Below are positions 8,805 to 18,459 of a DNA stretch of 64,000 bases, piece after piece (within the stretch, counting starts at the first letter, position 1; every line of letters begins with the position of its first letter). Position numbers and translations under genes: made by a program. This DNA is from Burkholderiaceae bacterium (GTDB taxonomy: Bacteria > Pseudomonadota > Gammaproteobacteria > Burkholderiales > Burkholderiaceae_B). Under the pieces are notes generated by a model. The model saw nothing but the letters and a program-made list of their open reading frames with translations, was not told the DNA's origin and ran no database searches. The stretch is from assembly GCA_004322135.1 (NCBI GenBank), contig SCSG01000008.1:124001-188000 (forward strand), written 5' to 3'.

Positions 8805-9998
8805 TTAGTACAGAGGCACGGCAAAGTTTACGTTGACGTCATAATCCCCTGTGACAAACTCGTGCCGGGCACCCAGCGAGATACGCAGGTTCTGGCTATA
8901 CCAGAACTGTTGAGTCAGCCCGAACTGCTGCTGCAAGGGACCTGAGGCGGAATATATTTGCTCGTAGGAACCAATCAGATTACCCCAGCGCCCGAGTGCA
9001 AGGGTGGCGGTCCATTGTTGACGACTGCGCGCCGAATCGAGGGCCGAATTCTGATAGCTGGACAGGTCGGAAAACCCTTCGCTACGCGTTTCATGCGTCC
9101 AGCCAAGCTTAAGCGAATCGAGCACCCTGGCCTCGTAGCCAATACGATAACGCCATCCCTGGTTGAAGTCGCGCGTTGCCCGTGCCACTGCCACCTGCCA
9201 TGCGCCCCAATCGCGGGTTGAGTACTTGCCCCCCACGCCGTTCACAGCAAGATTCGGTGCCCACTGCGTCTGTGTTTCCAGGGAAAGCTGTGGATCAACC
9301 CCATAGCTCAGCACACTTTCTCCTGCTGTCGGCCCGTATGTCAGTCCGCCAGGTTTGAGCGTCTCACCCGAATAGTCCAACGCCCCAAGCACGACGGAAT
9401 ACTGCAGGCTTCCTTGCGTCTGGCCGTCACCCGCCGCGGAGTGCGACAACGCAATGCCACCCAGACGTGCCCGATTACCCTGTATGGAATTTCCAGACCA
9501 GCTGTTGCCCAGCACGAGACTCGTGCCATCATCCCGGGAGTAGGTCCAGTTCTGGCTGCCCAACACCCAGGTGTCCGTCTTGCCGGCTGAAACCAGCGAT
9601 AGCCGGGTTTGTCCGCCATCAGGCTTGAAACCTGTGACGCCCGCGTCAGACCGCAGCGGGGTCAATCCCCTGCTGTAAGCAGGATCGACCAGCAGAACTT
9701 GAGCAGGAGCTGGTAAAAATGAATTGCCCGTGCCCGGCCCATCGATGGGGCCCGATCCATCAAACGGCAGCGGTTCGGGTAACGGTACGGGCGCAGCCAC
9801 ATCGTCATGCGGCACAGCGTAAGGCTGCACAGGTGCCAGATCTTTCAGGGTAGGGCTGACAGACAGATCGTTCACAGCCCACGGATCGGCGACGGATTGC
9901 GCCCGCGACACCGTCGCCGCACAGAGGCAGGCCGCGACGAAAACCAGCGCCCCACCGGACGGGAAACATATTTTTCCATGCAACGAACAAAAAGCCAT
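8805..9998 (-). CDS. Usher-like outer-membrane beta-barrel protein, function unknown
   Basis: About 397 residues from the ATG at 9998. The frame extends upstream to a GTG at 10046, but that start would bury the signal peptide. Residues about 14-34 (GGALVFVAACLCAATVSRAQ) look like a Sec signal peptide. A proline-rich segment follows, then a C-terminal half of alternating polar and aromatic strands ending in NVNFAVPLY with a terminal aromatic residue, as in BAM-inserted barrels. Segments such as SEGFSDLSSYQNS recall the second half of chaperone-usher barrels. However, the length is half that of an usher, the plug and N-terminal domains are absent, and no chaperone or pilin gene is nearby. The usher relationship is an inference. 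Confidence 0.6.
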   Translation of the reverse strand: MAFCSLHGKICFPSGGALVFVAACLCAATVSRAQSVADPWAVNDLSVSPTLKDLAPVQPYAVPHDDVAAPVPLPEPLPFDGSGPIDGPGTGNSFLPAPAQVLLVDPAYSRGLTPLRSDAGVTGFKPDGGQTRLSLVSAGKTDTWVLGSQNWTYSRDDGTSLVLGNSWSGNSIQGNRARLGGIALSHSAAGDGQTQGSLQYSVVLGALDYSGETLKPGGLTYGPTAGESVLSYGVDPQLSLETQTQWAPNLAVNGVGGKYSTRDWGAWQVAVARATRDFNQGWRYRIGYEARVLDSLKLGWTHETRSEGFSDLSSYQNSALDSARSRQQWTATLALGRWGNLIGSYEQIYSASGPLQQQFGLTQQFWYSQNLRISLGARHEFVTGDYDVNVNFAVPLY

Positions 9999-10097
9999 AT
10001 CCACAGCGACTACTTTGTCACAACGACCATATTGAACTGATGCCACTGCCGCCAGACCTTTCTGCCTATGGCGGCCCGGCCAGCCATCCGCCCGCGC

Positions 10098-11879
10098 CTA
10101 CGGCCTTCGGGATGAAGCGTCAAGCAGAGCTTCCCCACTTTGATCCAGTGATTTCTTCAGGGCCGAATATCTTTCCAGTAATGATGATTTATACACCACG
10201 CCCAGCAATACCGGGCTATCGCCACGGCTGACGACCGGCAAACGCTCACCCGGGAAATTGACGAATTGTTCCTGTGCCTCGTCCAGGCTCGTATCGGGGT
10301 GCAAGGCCTTGACGAAATCCAAGCGTAACACGTCGCCGGCGCGCCGCTCCTGCACATCGCCATGCACCAGCAGCATGCTGGTTAAATCCTGTTGCGCAAT
10401 GACACCCTGGAACACATTGTTCTCATCCACCACATAGAGATATTTGACCGGATATTCCACGAACATCCGCGAGGCTTCCTTCAGCGGCGTCACCGTCCGC
10501 ACGACCGTCTGAGCGGGACGCACCAGCTCGGCCAGCTTTGTATGGCGCAGCCTGCGACGCACAGCAACATCACGTTCGCGCACCAGCATCACGTCATACA
10601 TGCCTACTTGCGCAATGACTCGCGACACGAAGTGCGCCAGCACGCAAGCCAGCATCAGCGGCACAACCGCCTGAAAATTGAGCGTCATCTCAAAAATCAT
10701 GAGAATGGCCATCAGTGGCGCCCCGGTTGCCGCCCCCAGAAAGGATCCCATCCCCACCAACGTGAACAGATACGGCGACACAGCCATGTTCGGCCAGATC
10801 AGCAAAACGGCCTGGCCGAACAACGAACCAAACGCCGCCCCCACGAAGATGGTTGGAGTAAAAATCCCGCCAATCGCCCCCGAGCCCACCGTAAACGCGG
10901 TCGCAGCCACCTTTGCCACCAGCATCAGCAACAAGGCCTGCCACGCCCACTGTTCGTGTACGAGAGACACCACGACACTGTACCCGTTGCCTCCTACCCG
11001 TGGCATAAACACAAGCAATACGCCCAGCAGCAGGCCGCCCAGCCCAAGACGCAACGGCAACGGCAAGTGCAAGCTGCGAAACCCGCGCCGGGTGGCATCC
11101 AGCAACTTGAGGAACTGGGGCGCAAGAACCCCCGAAACCATACCCAGCACCAAAAATGGCAACACATGATTCGCACCCGGCACCGTCCCCGTCATATTCA
11201 CCGGGTATGTCACGTAATAGTGCCCCGTCCAGCGCATGGTGATATTGGATAATGCCGCCGCGACAAGCAAAGGGCCAACGTTTTGTATGGCCACGGTGCC
11301 CAGTACTATCTCGGCAATGAAAAGCGCACCGGCTATGGGCGCACCGTATGCCGCGGCAACGCCTGCCGCCGCGCCGCAAGCCACCAGCAGGCGCAGCCGA
11401 ACCGTGTCAAAGCCGGCAAAGCGTCCAATGGCCGACGCGGCAAGGGAACCCAGGTGGACCATGGCGCCTTCTCGTCCGATGGAACCACCCGACGCCACGG
11501 ACGAAAGCGAGGACAAGGACCGAAGTAGACCCTGGCGAAGCGACAAGCGCCCGTCGCCAATGGCCACGGCCTCCATATAATCGGAATTACTGCTTGCCTT
11601 TATTTTTGACGCCCACCACAGCAGCGCCCCGGCGACCACGCCACCCAGCATGGGAAACACAATGCGGCCCCACGGCGGCAAGCTGTGCATGACACGCCCC
11701 ACCGAGCCGGATTCTCCGGTAAGCAGGTGCTGCACGAGCGAAATGCTTTCGCGAAACCCGATGGTTGCCAATGCTCCGAGGATTCCCGCGATCGCCGCCC
11801 ACACCAGCATTGCCGGAGGTGCCGACAACCATTCCCAATCCTTCAGGCGCTGACGCAGGGTGCGCAACACTTCACTCAT
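10098..11879 (-). CDS. clcB: ClC-family chloride channel or exchanger with C-terminal CBS domains (ClcB-like)
   Basis: A 593-residue membrane protein. The ClC core (about residues 20-440) shows SGGSIGREGAMVHLG, where the glutamate of GREG is the gating and proton-coupling residue, and GSGAIGGIFTPTIFVG, part of the anion pathway. The first selectivity motif (GSGIP in ClcA) is replaced by a DYMEA-type segment as in E. coli ClcB. The last 150 or so residues form two CBS domains, which ClcB of E. coli lacks. These usually bind adenine nucleotides and gate the channel. Transport of chloride is a family inference. It is divergent from the response regulator gene. Confidence 0.88.
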   Translation of the reverse strand: MSEVLRTLRQRLKDWEWLSAPPAMLVWAAIAGILGALATIGFRESISLVQHLLTGESGSVGRVMHSLPPWGRIVFPMLGGVVAGALLWWASKIKASSNSDYMEAVAIGDGRLSLRQGLLRSLSSLSSVASGGSIGREGAMVHLGSLAASAIGRFAGFDTVRLRLLVACGAAAGVAAAYGAPIAGALFIAEIVLGTVAIQNVGPLLVAAALSNITMRWTGHYYVTYPVNMTGTVPGANHVLPFLVLGMVSGVLAPQFLKLLDATRRGFRSLHLPLPLRLGLGGLLLGVLLVFMPRVGGNGYSVVVSLVHEQWAWQALLLMLVAKVAATAFTVGSGAIGGIFTPTIFVGAAFGSLFGQAVLLIWPNMAVSPYLFTLVGMGSFLGAATGAPLMAILMIFEMTLNFQAVVPLMLACVLAHFVSRVIAQVGMYDVMLVRERDVAVRRRLRHTKLAELVRPAQTVVRTVTPLKEASRMFVEYPVKYLYVVDENNVFQGVIAQQDLTSMLLVHGDVQERRAGDVLRLDFVKALHPDTSLDEAQEQFVNFPGERLPVVSRGDSPVLLGVVYKSSLLERYSALKKSLDQSGEALLDASSRRP

Positions 11880-11983
11880 TCATGCCCCATGTGGCGAGCG
11901 CAAACCGAAGTTCGCGGATCACAGGTATTTCAGTTTATTTCGTACGGCTTGCAAGCAGCGGCGCGGATAGGCACACTTGCACT

Positions 11984-12682
11984 ATGGACGAAACCCTTAT
12001 CAAAGTGCTGGTCGTGGATGACGACCCGGCGTTACGGCAGCTGCTGGCCGACTATCTTAACCGACACGGCTATGATACGCTTTTGGCCCCCGATGCCAGC
12101 GACCTCGAATCGCGCATCCAGCGCTTTAACCCCGACCTTGTCGTGCTGGACCGCATGCTGCCTGACTGCGACGGCGCCGATGCCTGCCGTCGTCTGCGCC
12201 AGCTGGGCGAAGACATCCCCATCATTCTGCTGACTGCACGCGACGAAACTGTAGACCGCGTCATTGGGCTTGAGGCCGGAGCCGACGACTACCTGGGAAA
12301 GCCTTTCGATCCACGCGAACTCCTGGCGCGGGTCGAAACTGTTCTGCGGCGCAAAAAGGGCGCTTCCGCACTAATCAAGGAAAAGCAGGTTGCCTTCGGA
12401 CCATTTGTCTTCGACCCGGCGACACGCATGCTTTTCCGAAGCGGCGAACCCATAAAACTTACCGGCGGCGAAGTCAATCTGCTCGAAGCGCTGGTCAACA
12501 ACGCCGGCAAGCCACTGTCACGCGACCGGCTGCTTGCCCTGGCGCGCGACGACGAAGGCGAACGCAATGACCGCGCCATCGACATCGCCATCCTGCGCCT
12601 GCGGCGGGCTATCGAAGACGACCCCAAGCAGCCACGCTGGATACAAACGGTCTGGGGCATTGGCTATCGTTTCTCGCCTTAA
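11984..12682 (+). CDS. OmpR-family DNA-binding response regulator
   Basis: A 232-residue two-domain regulator. The receiver domain has the acidic pocket DDD (residues 12-14), the phosphorylation site D56 in LVVLDRMLP, a conserved threonine in LLTARDE, and a lysine in GKPFDPRELLAR. The C-terminal winged-helix domain carries LTGGEVNLLEALV and ends with WIQTVWGIGYRF. The receiver is closest in wording to OmpR (VDRVIGLEAGADDY). A longer reading frame extends upstream to 11765, but the family alignment starts at the ATG at 11984. It is followed after 9 nt by its histidine kinase. The regulated genes are not evident. Confidence 0.92.
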   Translation: MDETLIKVLVVDDDPALRQLLADYLNRHGYDTLLAPDASDLESRIQRFNPDLVVLDRMLPDCDGADACRRLRQLGEDIPIILLTARDETVDRVIGLEAGADDYLGKPFDPRELLARVETVLRRKKGASALIKEKQVAFGPFVFDPATRMLFRSGEPIKLTGGEVNLLEALVNNAGKPLSRDRLLALARDDEGERNDRAIDIAILRLRRAIEDDPKQPRWIQTVWGIGYRFSP

Positions 12683-12691
12683 TCACCCTTC

Positions 12692-14197
12692 ATGCGGCGT
12701 CTTCTCCTATCTTTGCAATCCCTGCATGCCCGGCTCATCCTGCTGACGCTGGGCACGATTCTTCTCGTGCAGGCGGCCACACTGGCCACCGTCAACTACT
12801 ACCGGGAGAAACTCACACAGGACGTGACTGTTCAGGTAGTTGCCACCACAATACGCACCGTGCGTGCCGCACTGGCCACGGTACCTGCCGACGAACGTGC
12901 AGAATTCGTACGCCAGGCCTCGCATAACGAGTGGCACCTATGGTCGCGAGCCATCGCCCGAGAGCGCCGGGAAGCGCGGCTCGCCGGAGGGGGACACCAA
13001 GGGCAACCCGGCCGGCCCGCATCACTTCACGATGCACGCACCGAACTGCCTCCATCACCACTACCCCGCGACATGCGGCGCGACCTGAGGCTCTTCATCA
13101 ACGAACTGAACGCCAGGCTGAACGACGGTACCCGGGTCGGTCTGTCACGCGGACCAGTACCGCGACTGTACATTTCGCTCATCCCCGATTCACCGACGGC
13201 CAGCGCCGACCCCATCGACGAAGAACAAGCCCGGGACAACCGGGAGTGGCTGGTCATCCCCCTGGACCGCATCACACCGCCTGTGGCCACACCCATCATC
13301 CTCGTGTGGCTCTCGGGAATGGGCCTGCTGCTGCTGATTTCCGCTGCCTTTTCCTGGCATATCACGCGACCCATCACGAGGCTGGTCAAAGCCACCGATC
13401 AGCTGGCGGCAGGCCAGCCGCAGCGCGTCGTTCCATCAGGGCCATCGGAAATCCGCGCACTGGGCGAGCGCTTCAACGCCATGCTCGACACCATGGCCGA
13501 ATCCAACGCGGTGCGCCATACGCTGCTGGCTGGCCTGCCGCACGACCTGAAGGGACCGCTTTCGCGCATGTGGCTGCGCATCGAAATGATTGACGACTCG
13601 AACTTCAAAGAGGGAATACGCCAGGACATCCAGGACATGCAGCGCATGGTTGACCAGTTCATTGGGTTCGTGCGTGGCACCGACCCGACGACCTATCGGT
13701 TTGTACCCATAGACCTGGCAACGTGGCTGGACGAGCGCGTCGGAGCCTGGGAAAGCGCGGGCAGCGAAGTGCGGCTGGTCAAAACGCTACCGCCTCCACT
13801 GCCGGTAAACGCGGATCGCATTGCGCTGGGTCGGCTGCTTGACAACCTGATCACCAATGCCTTGAACCACGCAGTTCCTCCGGTTGAAATCGCCCTGGAC
13901 GCCGACAGCGAAAACGCCATCATCGTCATCGAAGACCACGGACCCGGCATTCCGGCAGACCGGCGCGCCGAGGCCTTGCGGCCATTCTCGCGCCTTGATA
14001 CCGCACGTACACGCACCGGATCGGTCGGCCTGGGGCTTGCACTGGCCAATGCCATTGCCGGCGCCCACGGTGGCACGCTGGCGCTGGGCGATTCACCCTC
14101 GGGCGGCCTGAAAATCACCATCACATTACCGCGAGCGGATCAGCCGCGGAATCGGGGCGGCGACGGTGGTTTGGACAAGCCGAACATGCGCCAGTAA
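12692..14197 (+). CDS. EnvZ-like sensor histidine kinase
   Basis: A 501-residue inner-membrane kinase. It has a first membrane helix at residues 12-34, a periplasmic sensor region of about 165 residues rich in basic and acidic residues, and a second helix at about 199-221. A HAMP domain (ITRPITRLV) follows, then the H-box with phospho-acceptor H284 in GLPHDLKGPLSR, the N-box LLDNLITNALNH (about 382-393), and G-boxes EDHGPGIP and GSVGLGLALAN. The H-box matches EnvZ more than other kinases. The gene partners the upstream response regulator. Its last 58 nt overlap, on the opposite strand, the end of cydB. Confidence 0.92.
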   Translation: MRRLLLSLQSLHARLILLTLGTILLVQAATLATVNYYREKLTQDVTVQVVATTIRTVRAALATVPADERAEFVRQASHNEWHLWSRAIARERREARLAGGGHQGQPGRPASLHDARTELPPSPLPRDMRRDLRLFINELNARLNDGTRVGLSRGPVPRLYISLIPDSPTASADPIDEEQARDNREWLVIPLDRITPPVATPIILVWLSGMGLLLLISAAFSWHITRPITRLVKATDQLAAGQPQRVVPSGPSEIRALGERFNAMLDTMAESNAVRHTLLAGLPHDLKGPLSRMWLRIEMIDDSNFKEGIRQDIQDMQRMVDQFIGFVRGTDPTTYRFVPIDLATWLDERVGAWESAGSEVRLVKTLPPPLPVNADRIALGRLLDNLITNALNHAVPPVEIALDADSENAIIVIEDHGPGIPADRRAEALRPFSRLDTARTRTGSVGLGLALANAIAGAHGGTLALGDSPSGGLKITITLPRADQPRNRGGDGGLDKPNMRQ

Positions 14198-15189
14198 ACC
14201 CAGATATTGAAAATCAGCACCACTGGCAAGGCCACGACCGACGCGGCAAGAATGAAGCGCAGCGAATCCACCGAAGCGGCCGCGTCCCAGATGGTAATGT
14301 CGTCGAGCACCAGGTACGGGAAAAAGCTGTAGCCCAGCCCGCCCAACGTTGCCAGAAATACCAACAGTGTCATGGCAAATGGCAGCGCCGTTGTGCGGTA
14401 GCTGCGATTAATCATGCGCTGCAAGCACATTTCTATTGTCACGAAACAAATCAGCAGCCCGCCCCACAGACTCACGACCAGCGGCCACTGCGGACCATCG
14501 CTCCATTTGAGGAACACGCCGGTGTTGGCAAAGGCCAGGACCACCGAAAGCCCCACTGTTCCGGCCGCCGCCCAGCGCACCACATGCCTGCCCCACATGA
14601 CCGCACGCACGCGCAGCTCGCCTCCCACGCGCATGATCAGCCACGAGGCTCCAAGCAGGCAATAGCCCAGCAGCACGCAAACACCAAGGAAAAGGGAGAA
14701 CCACACATAACCAATGTCGGTCTGATACGACACCACCAACTGCGCCAGCAGAATGCCATGGGCAACAGCCGTAACGAGCGACCCCACCGCAAAGCCCGCG
14801 AGCCAGTGCTTCTGCATTTCAATCGGTGCGCGCAGTCTCAGCTCAAACGATACGGAGCGCAACATCACTCCCAGAGCCAGCAGGCTCAAGGGCAGGTACA
14901 GCTGGCCCATGATGCTGCCCCAGGCATGTGGAAATACCGATACGAACAGCCCCATCCCGAGGAACAGCCAGAACTCGTTGGCATCGCGCCAGGGACTCAG
15001 CAGCGAGAGCATCCGCGGGCGCAACGGCGCCGGCGCAAACAATACGAGGCAGCCAACACCTATGTCGAAGCCGTCCAGTACCGTGCCGGCGACGATAGTC
15101 GCAAACAGCAAGCCCATGAATACCAAAGGCATCCAGAACGCTGGATCCTGCGCGCTGAACCCCAGAAGGCTGACGAGTGTGTCTATCAT
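14140..15189 (-). CDS. cydB: Cytochrome bd-type quinol oxidase subunit II-like protein (CydB)
   Basis: A 349-residue multi-pass membrane protein. The conserved TVLDGFDIGVG segment (about residues 36-46) and the SPWRDANEFW segment match the GFDMGVG and HWDGNQVW motifs of CydB. The C-terminus VYWRMFG also matches. The ATG at 15189 overlaps the cydA stop by four bases (ATGA), indicating translational coupling. The frame stays open upstream but runs inside cydA, so that extension was discarded. It is about 30 residues shorter than E. coli CydB. The partner CydA lacks heme ligands, so the pair may not be a functional oxidase. No cydX-like small gene is visible. Confidence 0.82.
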   Translation of the reverse strand: MIDTLVSLLGFSAQDPAFWMPLVFMGLLFATIVAGTVLDGFDIGVGCLVLFAPAPLRPRMLSLLSPWRDANEFWLFLGMGLFVSVFPHAWGSIMGQLYLPLSLLALGVMLRSVSFELRLRAPIEMQKHWLAGFAVGSLVTAVAHGILLAQLVVSYQTDIGYVWFSLFLGVCVLLGYCLLGASWLIMRVGGELRVRAVMWGRHVVRWAAAGTVGLSVVLAFANTGVFLKWSDGPQWPLVVSLWGGLLICFVTIEMCLQRMINRSYRTTALPFAMTLLVFLATLGGLGYSFFPYLVLDDITIWDAAASVDSLRFILAASVVALPVVLIFNIWVYWRMFGLSKPPSPPRFRG

Positions 15190-16526
15190 GCACGCCCCCG
15201 GCGCCGGGCGATCGGCACTACGCCGTAGCGCACGATATGTCCCAGCATCAAGAAGAAGCCATACAGCAACGCCGCATAAACCAACGTATAAACCACCAGT
15301 GCGCCAGCCAGTACATCTGAACTGGTGTCTCCCGTGATCTCGGCCAGCGTTATGGTTCCATTGACCGCGTACGGAGACAGGCCAAACAACGCATGACAGA
15401 TCATCTCCAGACTGAGAGCCCAACCCGAAAACGTCATGAACGCAATGGTGTGACGCCACCAGGCGGGCAACATCCCCGGATCAAACCCTTTTTTATACAG
15501 GCGGAAAAATGTCATCCACGCCAGAACGGCCATGAACAGGCCTGTTGCCAGCAACAGGCGAAATGACCAGAATGTCAGAGCAACCGGCGGAGCCATGCCC
15601 GAAAGCCGATCCAGCCCTATCAATTTTCCGCGGGCGTCCCGCGCCACCCAACGCTCACCCGTGTCATGCCATGCCACGGGGGCCAGATTCCGGCCGTCAG
15701 CCGCGTCCGGCCAGGCAAACATCACGAGATCGGGCGGTGCACCGCTGTGCCAGTAAGCCGCGGTTGCCGCTGCCTTGGAGGGTTGATGTCGAACCACCTG
15801 GTTGCCATAGCCTGCCACCATGAAAGCCAGCACAATGACCGCACCCATGGACAGAAACAGTCCAGTACGGAACGCCAGTTGCTCGCTCTCGTCCAGCGGG
15901 TGGCGCAGCGTCCAGCGCGCACTCACGCCCATCAGCAAAAAGGCCACGGTCAATGCGGCAATGGTCAGCAGCAGACCGAACATCCAGCCCCCGAACGGGT
16001 TGAAGATCACGTCATGCCAGTCGGACACCAAGTAGCGTCCTTCGAACAACGACGCGCCGGTGGGAGCCTGCATCCAGCCCTGCAACACCATCATCCAGGC
16101 GGCGGCGAACGTCACACCGAGGGCCACCATGAAAACCAGAACCGTATGAATGCGCTCGGAAACATAGCGTTGCCCGAACAGCATGGCTCCAAGAAAACAT
16201 GATTTGAAGATAAAGGTGGTCAGGATGGCGCCGGCCAGCAACGGCCCGCCCACGTCACCGATCTTGTCCATGAGCAGTGGCCACAGACTGCCCACCTGGA
16301 TCAGCACAGGCATGCTGGAAGCCAGCGTCAGCACCACAGCCAGGGCAAACACCCGGACCCAGAACCGGTATGCAGCGGTCCACCCCGGGTTATCGCTTAG
16401 CGACGCGCCGATCTTGAAAAACAGCAGTACCCAAGCCAACCCCAACTCTATAACGAGAAAGACCGAAAAAAAGCCTAGGCTCAGGAAAAACTGCGTCTGG
16501 GACAACCAGAGAGTCGCATTCGTCAT
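15186..16526 (-). CDS. CydA-like membrane protein lacking the heme ligands of cytochrome bd
   Basis: A 446-residue homologue of cytochrome bd subunit I, recognised from ungapped blocks: the TM1 segment starting LSQTQF, NGWMQ-like QGWMQAP, NPFGG, a degenerate Q-loop (RHQPSKAAATAAYW), and the FR (R323) before the C-terminal helices. My manual alignment places E. coli heme ligands H19, E99, E107, H186 and M393 at F20, A100, K108, L185 and L325. All are lost, and the GRQPW motif reads GLSPY. The start at 16526 was chosen because upstream codons lack family similarity. The membrane fold and pairing with CydB are clear. Oxidase activity is doubtful. Divergent from glnS. Confidence 0.75.
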   Translation of the reverse strand: MTNATLWLSQTQFFLSLGFFSVFLVIELGLAWVLLFFKIGASLSDNPGWTAAYRFWVRVFALAVVLTLASSMPVLIQVGSLWPLLMDKIGDVGGPLLAGAILTTFIFKSCFLGAMLFGQRYVSERIHTVLVFMVALGVTFAAAWMMVLQGWMQAPTGASLFEGRYLVSDWHDVIFNPFGGWMFGLLLTIAALTVAFLLMGVSARWTLRHPLDESEQLAFRTGLFLSMGAVIVLAFMVAGYGNQVVRHQPSKAAATAAYWHSGAPPDLVMFAWPDAADGRNLAPVAWHDTGERWVARDARGKLIGLDRLSGMAPPVALTFWSFRLLLATGLFMAVLAWMTFFRLYKKGFDPGMLPAWWRHTIAFMTFSGWALSLEMICHALFGLSPYAVNGTITLAEITGDTSSDVLAGALVVYTLVYAALLYGFFLMLGHIVRYGVVPIARRRGRA

Positions 16527-16701: not shown

Positions 16702-18459
16702 ATGACATCCACCACCTCCACACCCCCAGCGTCCAATTTTTTGCGCACCATTATCGAGCAGGACCTGGCCAACGGCACGTACTCTGACAAGCGCTGGGCC
16801 GGCAAACCGGGCCCGGCCTCGGTGCAGAAGCAAGGCGCCCTGGACACGGCCAGAATACGCACACGCTTTCCACCCGAACCCAATGGCCACCTGCATATCG
16901 GCCATGCCAAGAGCATCTGCCTGAACTTCGGTCTGGCCCGCGATTACGGCGGCGCGTGCCATTTGCGCTTCGACGATACGAACCCTGAAAAAGAAAACGA
17001 CGAATACGTCAACGCCATCATCGACACGGTAAAGTGGCTGGGTTTCAGCTGGGAATTCCAGACCGAGACCAACCTCTACTACGCCAGCGACTACTTCGAT
17101 TACCTCTATGAGTTTGCGCAGGCACTTATCCGGTCGGGCGACGCCTACGTGGATGAGCAGACCTCCGAGCAAGTCCGCGCCACGCGCGGAACCCTGAAAG
17201 AAAAAGGCGTCAATTCGCCATGGCGCGACCGCCCCGCCGAAGAATCGTTGGCCCTGCTGGACGAAATGCGTGGGGGCAAACACCCCGACGGCAGCCTGAT
17301 CCTGCGCGCCAAGATCGACATGGGCTCACCCAACATGAATCTGCGCGACCCGGCGCTGTACCGCATCCGGCATGCTGAACACCACCGTACGGGCAGCAAA
17401 TGGTGCATCTATCCCATGTACACCTGGGCACACCCCGTCGAAGACGCGCTGGAGGGCATTACGCACAGCATCTGCACGCTTGAATTCGAAGACCAGCGCC
17501 CTTTCTACGACTGGATACTGGAAAAGCTGGCCGCGCTGGGGCAGCTGAATCACCCCCTGCCCCATCAATACGAATTCGCACGACTCAACCTCAGCTATGT
17601 AGTCACCAGCAAACGCAAGCTGCTCATGCTCGTGCAGGAAGGCTATGTAAGCGGCTGGGACGACCCACGGCTACCCACACTCGTGGGGTTGCGTCGACGT
17701 GGCTATACCCCTGAAGCCATTCGTCTGTTCTGCGAACGGCTGGGAGTGTCCAAGTCCAGTTCGCACATCAACCACAACATGCTTGAACAGGCGTTGCGCG
17801 ACGATCTGGACCCAAAAGCTGACCGACGGATCGCCGTGCTCGATCCCGTGAAGCTAGTCATCACTAACTACCCCGAAGGCCAAACCGAGCGCTGTGTTGC
17901 CCCCAGCAATCCGCACAACCCGGATAGCACGTCACGGGAATTTCCGTTCTCGCGCGAATTGTGGATTGAACGCGACGATTTCCTGGAAAACCCGCCCAAA
18001 AAGTATTTTCGCCTCTTTCCCGGCAACACAGTCCGCCTGAAGTATGGCTATACCGTCAAATGCACCGGCTGCCTCAAGGACGAAAACGGTCGCGTCACTG
18101 AAGTCCATGCCGAATACCTGGCGGATACCAAAAGCGGCTCGGCGGGAGCCAACGCCGTCAAAGTCAAGGGTACGATCACGTGGGTCAGTGCCGCGCACGC
18201 CATCAGGGCGGAAGTCCGACTCTACGACCGGTTGTTCACCGATCCGCACCCCGACAGCGGCAACAAGAACTTCCTGGACTCGCTCAACCCCAACTCGATC
18301 CAGACGGTCCAGGGATGGCTCGAACCGGGGACCCATGCGGATCCGGGTTCACTCTGGCAGTTCGAACGGTTGGGCTATTTTATTGCCGACACCATCGATT
18401 CGACGCGCGAACGGCCAGTCATCAACCGCGCCGTCACCTTGCGGGACGCCTGGATCTGA
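16702..18459 (+). CDS. glnS: Glutaminyl-tRNA synthetase
   Basis: A 585-residue class I aminoacyl-tRNA synthetase that charges tRNA-Gln. RTRFPPEPNGHLHIGHAKS (about residues 55-73) contains the HIGH signature, and VVTSKRKLL (about 296-304) is the KMSKS-type loop. The C-terminal part forms the two anticodon-binding beta-barrels (CTGCLKDENGRV, NRAVTLRDAW). Presence of GlnRS implies direct glutaminylation rather than sole use of the amidotransferase route. The length is slightly above that of E. coli (554) because of an N-terminal extension of about 20 residues. It is followed by the min operon. Confidence 0.97.
   Translation: MTSTTSTPPASNFLRTIIEQDLANGTYSDKRWAGKPGPASVQKQGALDTARIRTRFPPEPNGHLHIGHAKSICLNFGLARDYGGACHLRFDDTNPEKENDEYVNAIIDTVKWLGFSWEFQTETNLYYASDYFDYLYEFAQALIRSGDAYVDEQTSEQVRATRGTLKEKGVNSPWRDRPAEESLALLDEMRGGKHPDGSLILRAKIDMGSPNMNLRDPALYRIRHAEHHRTGSKWCIYPMYTWAHPVEDALEGITHSICTLEFEDQRPFYDWILEKLAALGQLNHPLPHQYEFARLNLSYVVTSKRKLLMLVQEGYVSGWDDPRLPTLVGLRRRGYTPEAIRLFCERLGVSKSSSHINHNMLEQALRDDLDPKADRRIAVLDPVKLVITNYPEGQTERCVAPSNPHNPDSTSREFPFSRELWIERDDFLENPPKKYFRLFPGNTVRLKYGYTVKCTGCLKDENGRVTEVHAEYLADTKSGSAGANAVKVKGTITWVSAAHAIRAEVRLYDRLFTDPHPDSGNKNFLDSLNPNSIQTVQGWLEPGTHADPGSLWQFERLGYFIADTIDSTRERPVINRAVTLRDAWI

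What the first reader, a model, noticed from the sequence alone, without database searches (positions are those of the whole stretch)
14140..16526. CydAB pair whose CydA has lost all heme ligands
The CydA homologue aligns without gaps to E. coli CydA over the ligand helices, yet H19, E99, E107, H186 and M393 become F20, A100, K108, L185 and L325, and the GRQPW motif is degenerate. The gene is intact, overlaps cydB by four bases (ATGA) and keeps CydA-type membrane segments, so it is not a pseudogene. It may be a heme-free membrane complex that binds quinol without reducing oxygen, or a bd-family branch with a new role. I do not know whether this branch has been described.
Basis: partly seen in the sequence, partly recalled or inferred. 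Interest (0 to 1): 0.8.

Follow-up and report, generated by a model that had tools for sequence, protein, structure and literature searches.

The report
Heme-less CydAB pair of Alcaligenaceae
A two-gene membrane complex annotated as an oxygen-reducing cytochrome bd oxidase has lost the residues that hold its hemes, yet it is kept intact in many species of one bacterial family, so it probably does not breathe oxygen and has taken on another job.

Summary
The 446-aa CydA homologue aligns without gaps to E. coli CydA over the ligand blocks and lacks H19, E99, E107, H186, M393, and also E445, W441 and R448. It belongs to a large branch: 74 proteins read from a draw of the window's GTDB family and 80 named Alcaligenaceae loci (Achromobacter, Bordetella, Alcaligenes, Pusillimonas). 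The 36 members in the tree form one clade (100/100), sister to a ligand-bearing CydA of the same family. All 42 CydA read outside the family keep H-E-E-H-M. Selection is purifying (median dN/dS 0.14). Three near-complete genomes have it as their only CydA. B. bronchiseptica cydAB3, listed in print as a high-affinity bd oxidase, is very probably this branch. Ligand and quinol positions drift, while most positions of the former cytoplasmic proton channel are nearly invariant and more basic than in relatives (CydA R54, R58, K108; CydB R68-D69, E116, R120). I infer a heme-free non-oxidase that works through this charged channel; its substrate is unknown. Quinol binding is not supported.

The parts
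15186..16526 (-). heme-less CydA homologue (446 aa)
14140..15189 (-). CydB homologue (349 aa)
15186..15189 (-). ATGA overlap of cydA stop and cydB start
16467..16469 (-). codon F20, place of heme ligand H19
16227..16229 (-). codon A100, place of heme d ligand E99
16203..16205 (-). codon K108, place of E107 (proton donor near heme d); K in 71 and R in 3 of 74
16197..16199 (-). codon C110, signature residue of the branch (C in 67 of 74)
15972..15974 (-). codon L185, place of heme b558 ligand H186
15552..15554 (-). codon L325, place of heme b558 ligand M393
15387..15389 (-). codon L380, place of heme b595 ligand E445
15369..15383 (-). GLSPY, degenerate GRQPW motif (382-386)
16365..16367 (-). codon R54 (E. 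coli K53, H-channel); R in 73 of 74
16353..16355 (-). codon R58 (E. coli K57, H-channel); R in 74 of 74
14983..14988 (-). CydB R68-D69 (E. coli W57-D58): W->R fixed, D kept
14842..14844 (-). CydB E116 (E. coli D105, H-channel); E in 73 of 73
14830..14832 (-). CydB R120 (E. coli K109, H-channel); R in 73 of 73
16702..18459 (+). context: glnS, divergent conserved neighbour
11765..14197 (+). context: OmpR/EnvZ-like response regulator (11765-12682, longest frame) and histidine kinase (12692-14197), convergent conserved neighbours

Best explanation
It is a heme-free paralogue of a cyanide-insensitive (CIO-type) bd oxidase and no longer an oxygen reductase. SHOWN by sequence: ligand loss, one clade, purifying selection, kept CydA fold of the model. 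INFERRED: it arose by duplication within Alcaligenaceae, the complex still assembles as CydA-CydB, the heme pockets are closed by hydrophobic side chains, and its working part is the old proton channel from the cytoplasm along TM2/TM3 of both subunits. Most positions of that path are nearly invariant and more basic than in relatives (CydA R54, R58, K108; CydB R68 beside D69, E116, R120). It most likely binds or conducts a proton or a small cytoplasmic anion without redox chemistry. My odds: heme-free non-oxidase about 0.85; channel as the working site about 0.4; transported or sensed ligand unknown.
For: E99 and H186 absent in 74 of 74 branch proteins of the family draw (E107 and R391 were the sorting rule); H19, E99, E107 and H186 absent in 80 of 80 named loci. 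One clade, 36 of 36 rows, bootstrap/SH-aLRT 100/100 with ligand and quinol columns masked; sister L073 keeps all ligands (100/99). dN/dS median 0.143 over 172 pairs of 23 genes. Model pLDDT 89.5; VIA Z 49.6 to 7ose_A, rmsd 2.1, 428 aligned. Mean entropy 0.21 for the 8 scored H-channel columns, 1.95 for 8 ligand/quinol columns, 1.44 for all (Mann-Whitney p 6e-5). H-channel residues K53, K57, E74, E107, D105B, D58B are named in PMC13189123 (passages), and D119, K57, K109B, D105B, Y379B, D58B in PMC6853902 (passages). CydB W57->R in 71 of 71 letters, L058 left out. Only CydA in G006, G042 and G127, none with a CydD match over the cut-off. B. bronchiseptica strains with cyd3 as the only oxidase could not be made (PMC11257404, passages).
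Against: No measurement of heme content, transport or binding is known to me. The H-channel list comes from E. coli; of its nine positions E74 is L here (S in the CIO-B relatives) and Y379 is mostly F (not scored, too many gaps). K108, D69 and CydB R120 are no more constrained than the same columns in relatives; only R54 and CydA R120 are strongly so, R58 and E116 mildly. CydB R68 is beside D58, not itself on the published list. The most newly constrained columns are mainly CydB positions outside the channel. The model is CydA alone; the pair was not modelled and pocket closure is unmeasured. Strains with only cco or only cio could not be made either, and cyd3 transcripts were low, so that result also fits a real but unexpressed oxidase.
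Confidence: 0.45

Rival explanations
1. Pseudoenzyme partner or assembly regulator of the canonical bd oxidase: the heme-less pair mixes with or chaperones true CydAB.
For: The window genome carries a canonical CydA, as do 16 of the 20 genomes searched with PF01654 (match above 500 bits; chosen set); bd-I forms dimers (PMC13189123, passages).
Against: G006, G042 and G127 (99% complete) have the heme-less CydA as the only PF01654 match and no CydD over the cut-off. It sits at its own locus: glnS neighbour in 84 of 113 loci, in 0 of 26 ligand-bearing loci.
Confidence: 0.15
2. A changed hemoprotein: one heme remains, held by new ligands such as K108 or C110, and serves another redox or sensing task.
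For: K108-S109-C110 is a near-invariant new motif next to the old heme d site; [quoted passage not shown] coli (PMC13189123, passages); L058 keeps H19, M393, W441, E445 and GRQP.
Against: The other pocket positions are of average or higher variability (42nd-89th percentile for F20, A100, L185, L325, L380, I376, L383, S384; only G382 and P385 of the GRQPW motif stay fixed). The conserved histidines are H127, which all 17 ligand-bearing rows also have, and H430 near the C-terminus; I take neither for a ligand (inference).
Confidence: 0.15
3. Heme-free quinol-binding complex.
For: K252 is K in 76% of the branch; the fold also matches membrane subunits of alternative complex III at Z 18-21, which are heme-free quinol-site subunits (recalled).
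Against: E257, most of GRQPW and D239 are lost and free to vary.
Confidence: 0.1
4. Decaying relic of an oxidase without function.
For: cydB lies in two frames in one Bordetella genome; 9 of 151 family genomes have no match at all; low transcripts in B. bronchiseptica (PMC11257404, passages).
Against: dN/dS 0.04-0.45, median 0.14, no stops in the 23 genes used; invariant residues across many genera.
Confidence: 0.05

Closest known systems
CIO-type bd oxidase (CioAB; perhaps subtype B of Degli Esposti 2015, PMC5322542, passages)
   Same: Gene pair, no long Q-loop insert (from length), fold; sister sequence L073 and 42 outside CydA align over most of the length
   Different: Heme-ligand positions H-E-E-H-M, E445 and GRQPW are present there and lost here; CydB W57 there (34 of 34), R here. 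My sequences were not compared with that paper's own set.
E. coli bd-I / bd-II (CydAB, AppCB)
   Same: CydA fold (Z 46-50), two-subunit core
   Different: No ligands, no E257 or GRQPW; cydX was not looked for
B. bronchiseptica/B. pertussis cydAB3 (BB4012-4011)
   Same: Very probably this branch. G091 has an exact B. pertussis risA primer match, one canonical and one heme-less CydA, and cydB in two frames, as reported for cydB3 of strain 18323. The published cydAB3 deletion implies 1338 bases between the two start codons; in G091 it is 1337.
   Different: Listed in print as a high-affinity bd oxidase; RB50 itself was not available here
CydA' of CydAA' (Murali 2021, recalled; paper not held)
   Same: A CydA paralogue that changed role
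   Different: Pairs with an active CydA (recalled; OR-N types in PMC10839748, passages); here the partner is a CydB

Membership tests
Cytochrome bd oxygen reductase superfamily (by descent) | CydA fold and PF01654 match over full length | tested here: met
   268 bits, cut-off 26.2; 33 of 33 members of A2 match; Z 49.6
Cytochrome bd oxygen reductase superfamily (by descent) | CydB partner gene | tested here: met
   PF02322 186 bits, ATGA overlap
Cytochrome bd oxidase (functional) | heme b558 ligands H186, M393 | tested here: not met
   L185, L325
Cytochrome bd oxidase (functional) | heme d / b595 ligands H19, E99, E445 | tested here: not met
   F20, A100, L380
Cytochrome bd oxidase (functional) | proton donor E107 | tested here: not met
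   K108 in the window protein
Cytochrome bd oxidase (functional) | quinol site K252, E257, GRQPW | tested here: not met
   K251 kept, but A256 and GLSPY
Cytochrome bd oxidase (functional) | binds heme and reduces O2 | not testable with these tools
   needs the purified complex
CIO subtype B | Tyr at position 182 (PMC5322542, passages) | tested here: not met
   W181 here; Y in 56 of 58 ligand-bearing rows
CIO subtype B | phylogenetic place by the published reference set | not tested
   reference sequences not fetched; in my tree the branch is sister to L073 among short CydA

The most novel reading that the evidence does not exclude
A non-redox member of the bd superfamily: a heme-free CydAB, widespread in one bacterial family, whose old proton channel has become the working part of a cofactor-free proton or anion channel, carrier or sensor.
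Probability: 0.35. Interest if true: 0.85.

Novelty: new variant of a known kind. Interest (0 to 1): 0.64.

Why it matters
A gene pair counted as a terminal oxidase in Bordetella, and very probably found in many of its relatives, probably cannot reduce oxygen, so oxidase inventories for this family need correcting. If the channel reading is right, it shows how a respiratory enzyme can lose all its cofactors and keep its ion path for a new use. The first step, heme or no heme, is a simple test.

Tried and rejected
Pseudogene: rejected by dN/dS and by the frames used there. Operon partner as a clue: none found. The pair stands between divergent glnS and a convergent OmpR/EnvZ-like pair. I suspected that pair to be RisAS; two B. 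pertussis risA primers did not match the G091 locus L044, and one of them matched 1.0 Mb away in G091, so I dropped it. Promoter/terminator scan: 2 promoter-like sites against 0.8 in shuffles, 6 terminator-like against 5.0. In one search several outside CydA showed a gap and G at K252/E257; in the wider set E257 is E in 57 of 58, so I took this for misalignment. The second structure job was not used: the pair cannot be modelled and CydB alone adds little.

Rows dropped: the first alignment also held CydB frames, because the query file contained both window proteins. Of 185 rows, 74 were classed heme-less, 17 ligand-bearing and 94 set aside, among them L083 and one piece of L089. The careful tree left out the long rows L080 and L072. 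The tallies pool 74 and 80 rows that share species.

Literature: searches (two returned no papers) gave no title, abstract start or passage seen by me that states the ligand loss. Most subscription papers and Murali 2021 are not held, so prior description is not excluded. Outside the family only 42 CydA were read residue by residue, the best-scoring ones; a distant or independent heme-less branch could score low and be missed.
Full report
WHAT IS THERE. The pair lies on the minus strand: CydA homologue 15186-16526 (446 aa), CydB homologue 14140-15189 (349 aa), overlapping by ATGA. Pfam hits are full length. E445, W441 and R448 are lost too. The genome has a second, canonical CydA on another contig with all ligands.

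HOW WIDE. A search of 151 genomes of the same GTDB family gave matches in 142, canonical CydA included. From the loci fetched, 74 CydA proteins class as heme-less by the rule K/R at 107 and R at 391, and 17 as ligand-bearing, the latter including the E. coli copy and a fragment; 94 further rows, mostly CydB, were set aside. By hand count of the listing, 89 of 151 genomes have a match of 280 bits or more; not all of these were read. A scan of genome contigs found 483 relatives, of which the best 80 were kept: Achromobacter, Bordetella, Alcaligenes, Pusillimonas, Pollutimonas, Candidimonas and others named Alcaligenaceae, plus MAGs. In these 80, H19, E99, E107 (K or R) and H186 are absent; M393 is kept in 7. 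The two sets overlap in species. The closest named relative is Eoetvoesiella caeni at 75% identity, an Alcaligenaceae.

WHERE IT STOPS. In draws of 300 (order), 369 (class) and 398 (phylum) genomes, the best matches of the branch profile outside the family reach 412.8, 404.9 and 409.6 bits, against 631 or more for the six branch members. The draws overlap, and the profile was built from 30 branch members, so divergent branch members would score lower than these six. All 42 CydA read from the outside loci, the best-scoring ones, carry H-E-E-H-M. With ligand and quinol columns masked, the heme-less rows form one side of a branch (38 rows, quick tree; 36 rows, careful tree without two long rows, 100/100). 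The sister is L073, a ligand-bearing CydA of G053, which also has the heme-less pair (100/99). L058 is a partial state: it keeps H19, M393, W441, E445 and GRQP but has E99A, E107K, H186S and E257A. Its place inside the clade is unsupported (36/1), so the order of losses is suggested, not shown.

SELECTION. Among 23 genes chosen from the 80 named loci, 172 pairs with dS between 0.05 and 1 give a median dN/dS of 0.143, range 0.04-0.45. Gene order is also kept: glnS in 84 of 113 loci, minC 67, minD 59, histidine kinase 55, response regulator 50. Clusters were named by likeness to the window's own neighbours (minD by eye). The 113 were taken by score alone and include at least one ligand-bearing locus (L071); some have short flanks, and misses were not examined. 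None of 26 ligand-bearing loci has glnS, minC, minD or the kinase within 5-7 kb (one weak regulator match in L081). The pair is therefore a separate gene set at its own place.

WHAT REPLACED THE HEMES. Eight ligand and quinol positions have mean entropy 1.95 in the branch, against 1.44 for all columns. The E. coli H-channel positions named in PMC13189123 and PMC6853902 (passages) average 0.21 in the 8 of 9 that could be scored. E107 is K in 71 and R in 3 of 74. K57 is R in 74 of 74. Position 53, variable in relatives, is R in 73 of 74; position 119, variable in relatives, is R in 68 of 74. In CydB, D58 is kept in 70 of 71 letters, its neighbour W57 is R in 71 of 71, D105 is E and K109 is R in all 73. 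Against this: E74 is L, Y379 mostly F; K108, D69 and CydB R120 are no more constrained than in relatives; and most newly fixed columns lie in CydB outside the channel. I chose to test this set after seeing K108 and CydB R68, so the p value of 6e-5 is a guide only.

STRUCTURE. The AlphaFold2 model of CydA alone is confident (pLDDT 89.5) and has the CydA fold (Z 42-50 to ten bd structures). Next come subunits of alternative complex III (Z 18-21). Pocket closure could not be measured.

INDEPENDENCE. In 20 chosen genomes searched with PF01654, G006, G042 and G127 (99% complete) have only the heme-less CydA; 16 have a match above 500 bits as well. In 6 genomes searched for CydD, G006, G042, G127 and G018 have no match over the curated cut-off, though weaker ABC-transporter matches abound; G018 keeps a canonical CydA. 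An obligate role beside canonical bd is thus unlikely.

LINK TO A NAMED GENE. PMC11257404 (passages) lists cydAB1, cydAB3 and cioAB in B. bronchiseptica and calls cydAB3 high-affinity bd. Its deletion grew like wild type in ambient air and no single oxidase was needed for persistence in mice; cyd3 transcripts were low; strains with cyd3 alone could not be made, nor with cco or cio alone; cydB3 is broken in strain 18323. Genome G091 shares a genus code with G112, whose contig length equals that of a B. trematum contig. It has an exact risA primer match, one canonical and one heme-less CydA, and cydB in two frames. The published deletion (2373 bases, from 41 upstream of cydA3 to base 994 of cydB3) implies 1338 bases between the start codons; G091 has 1337. 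I conclude that cydAB3 is this branch; RB50 was not available to prove it. A 2026 review (PMC13367067, passages) still lists it as bd-type and says these oxidases have not been biochemically characterised.

JUDGEMENT. Heme-free and non-oxidase: strong inference from sequence. Channel role: moderate inference. Substrate: open.

Noticed in passing
L083 (393-aa frame) and G070:C1:1607949-1608647 (402-aa frame): Short, divergent CydA-like frames in family genomes, left out of both classes.
   Followed up: no
L089: A ligand-bearing CydA read in two frames (260 and 252 aa).
   Followed up: no
window 11765-14197: OmpR/EnvZ-like pair below NCBIfam cut-offs, kept beside the pair in about half of 113 loci; not RisAS in the Bordetella genome tested.
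   Followed up: partly
window 8805-10046 (-): 413-aa protein with no NCBIfam match at E 0.001.
   Followed up: no
model m350aa497be1d: CydA model matches alternative complex III membrane subunits at Z 18-21 and cytochrome b561 at Z 8.
   Followed up: no
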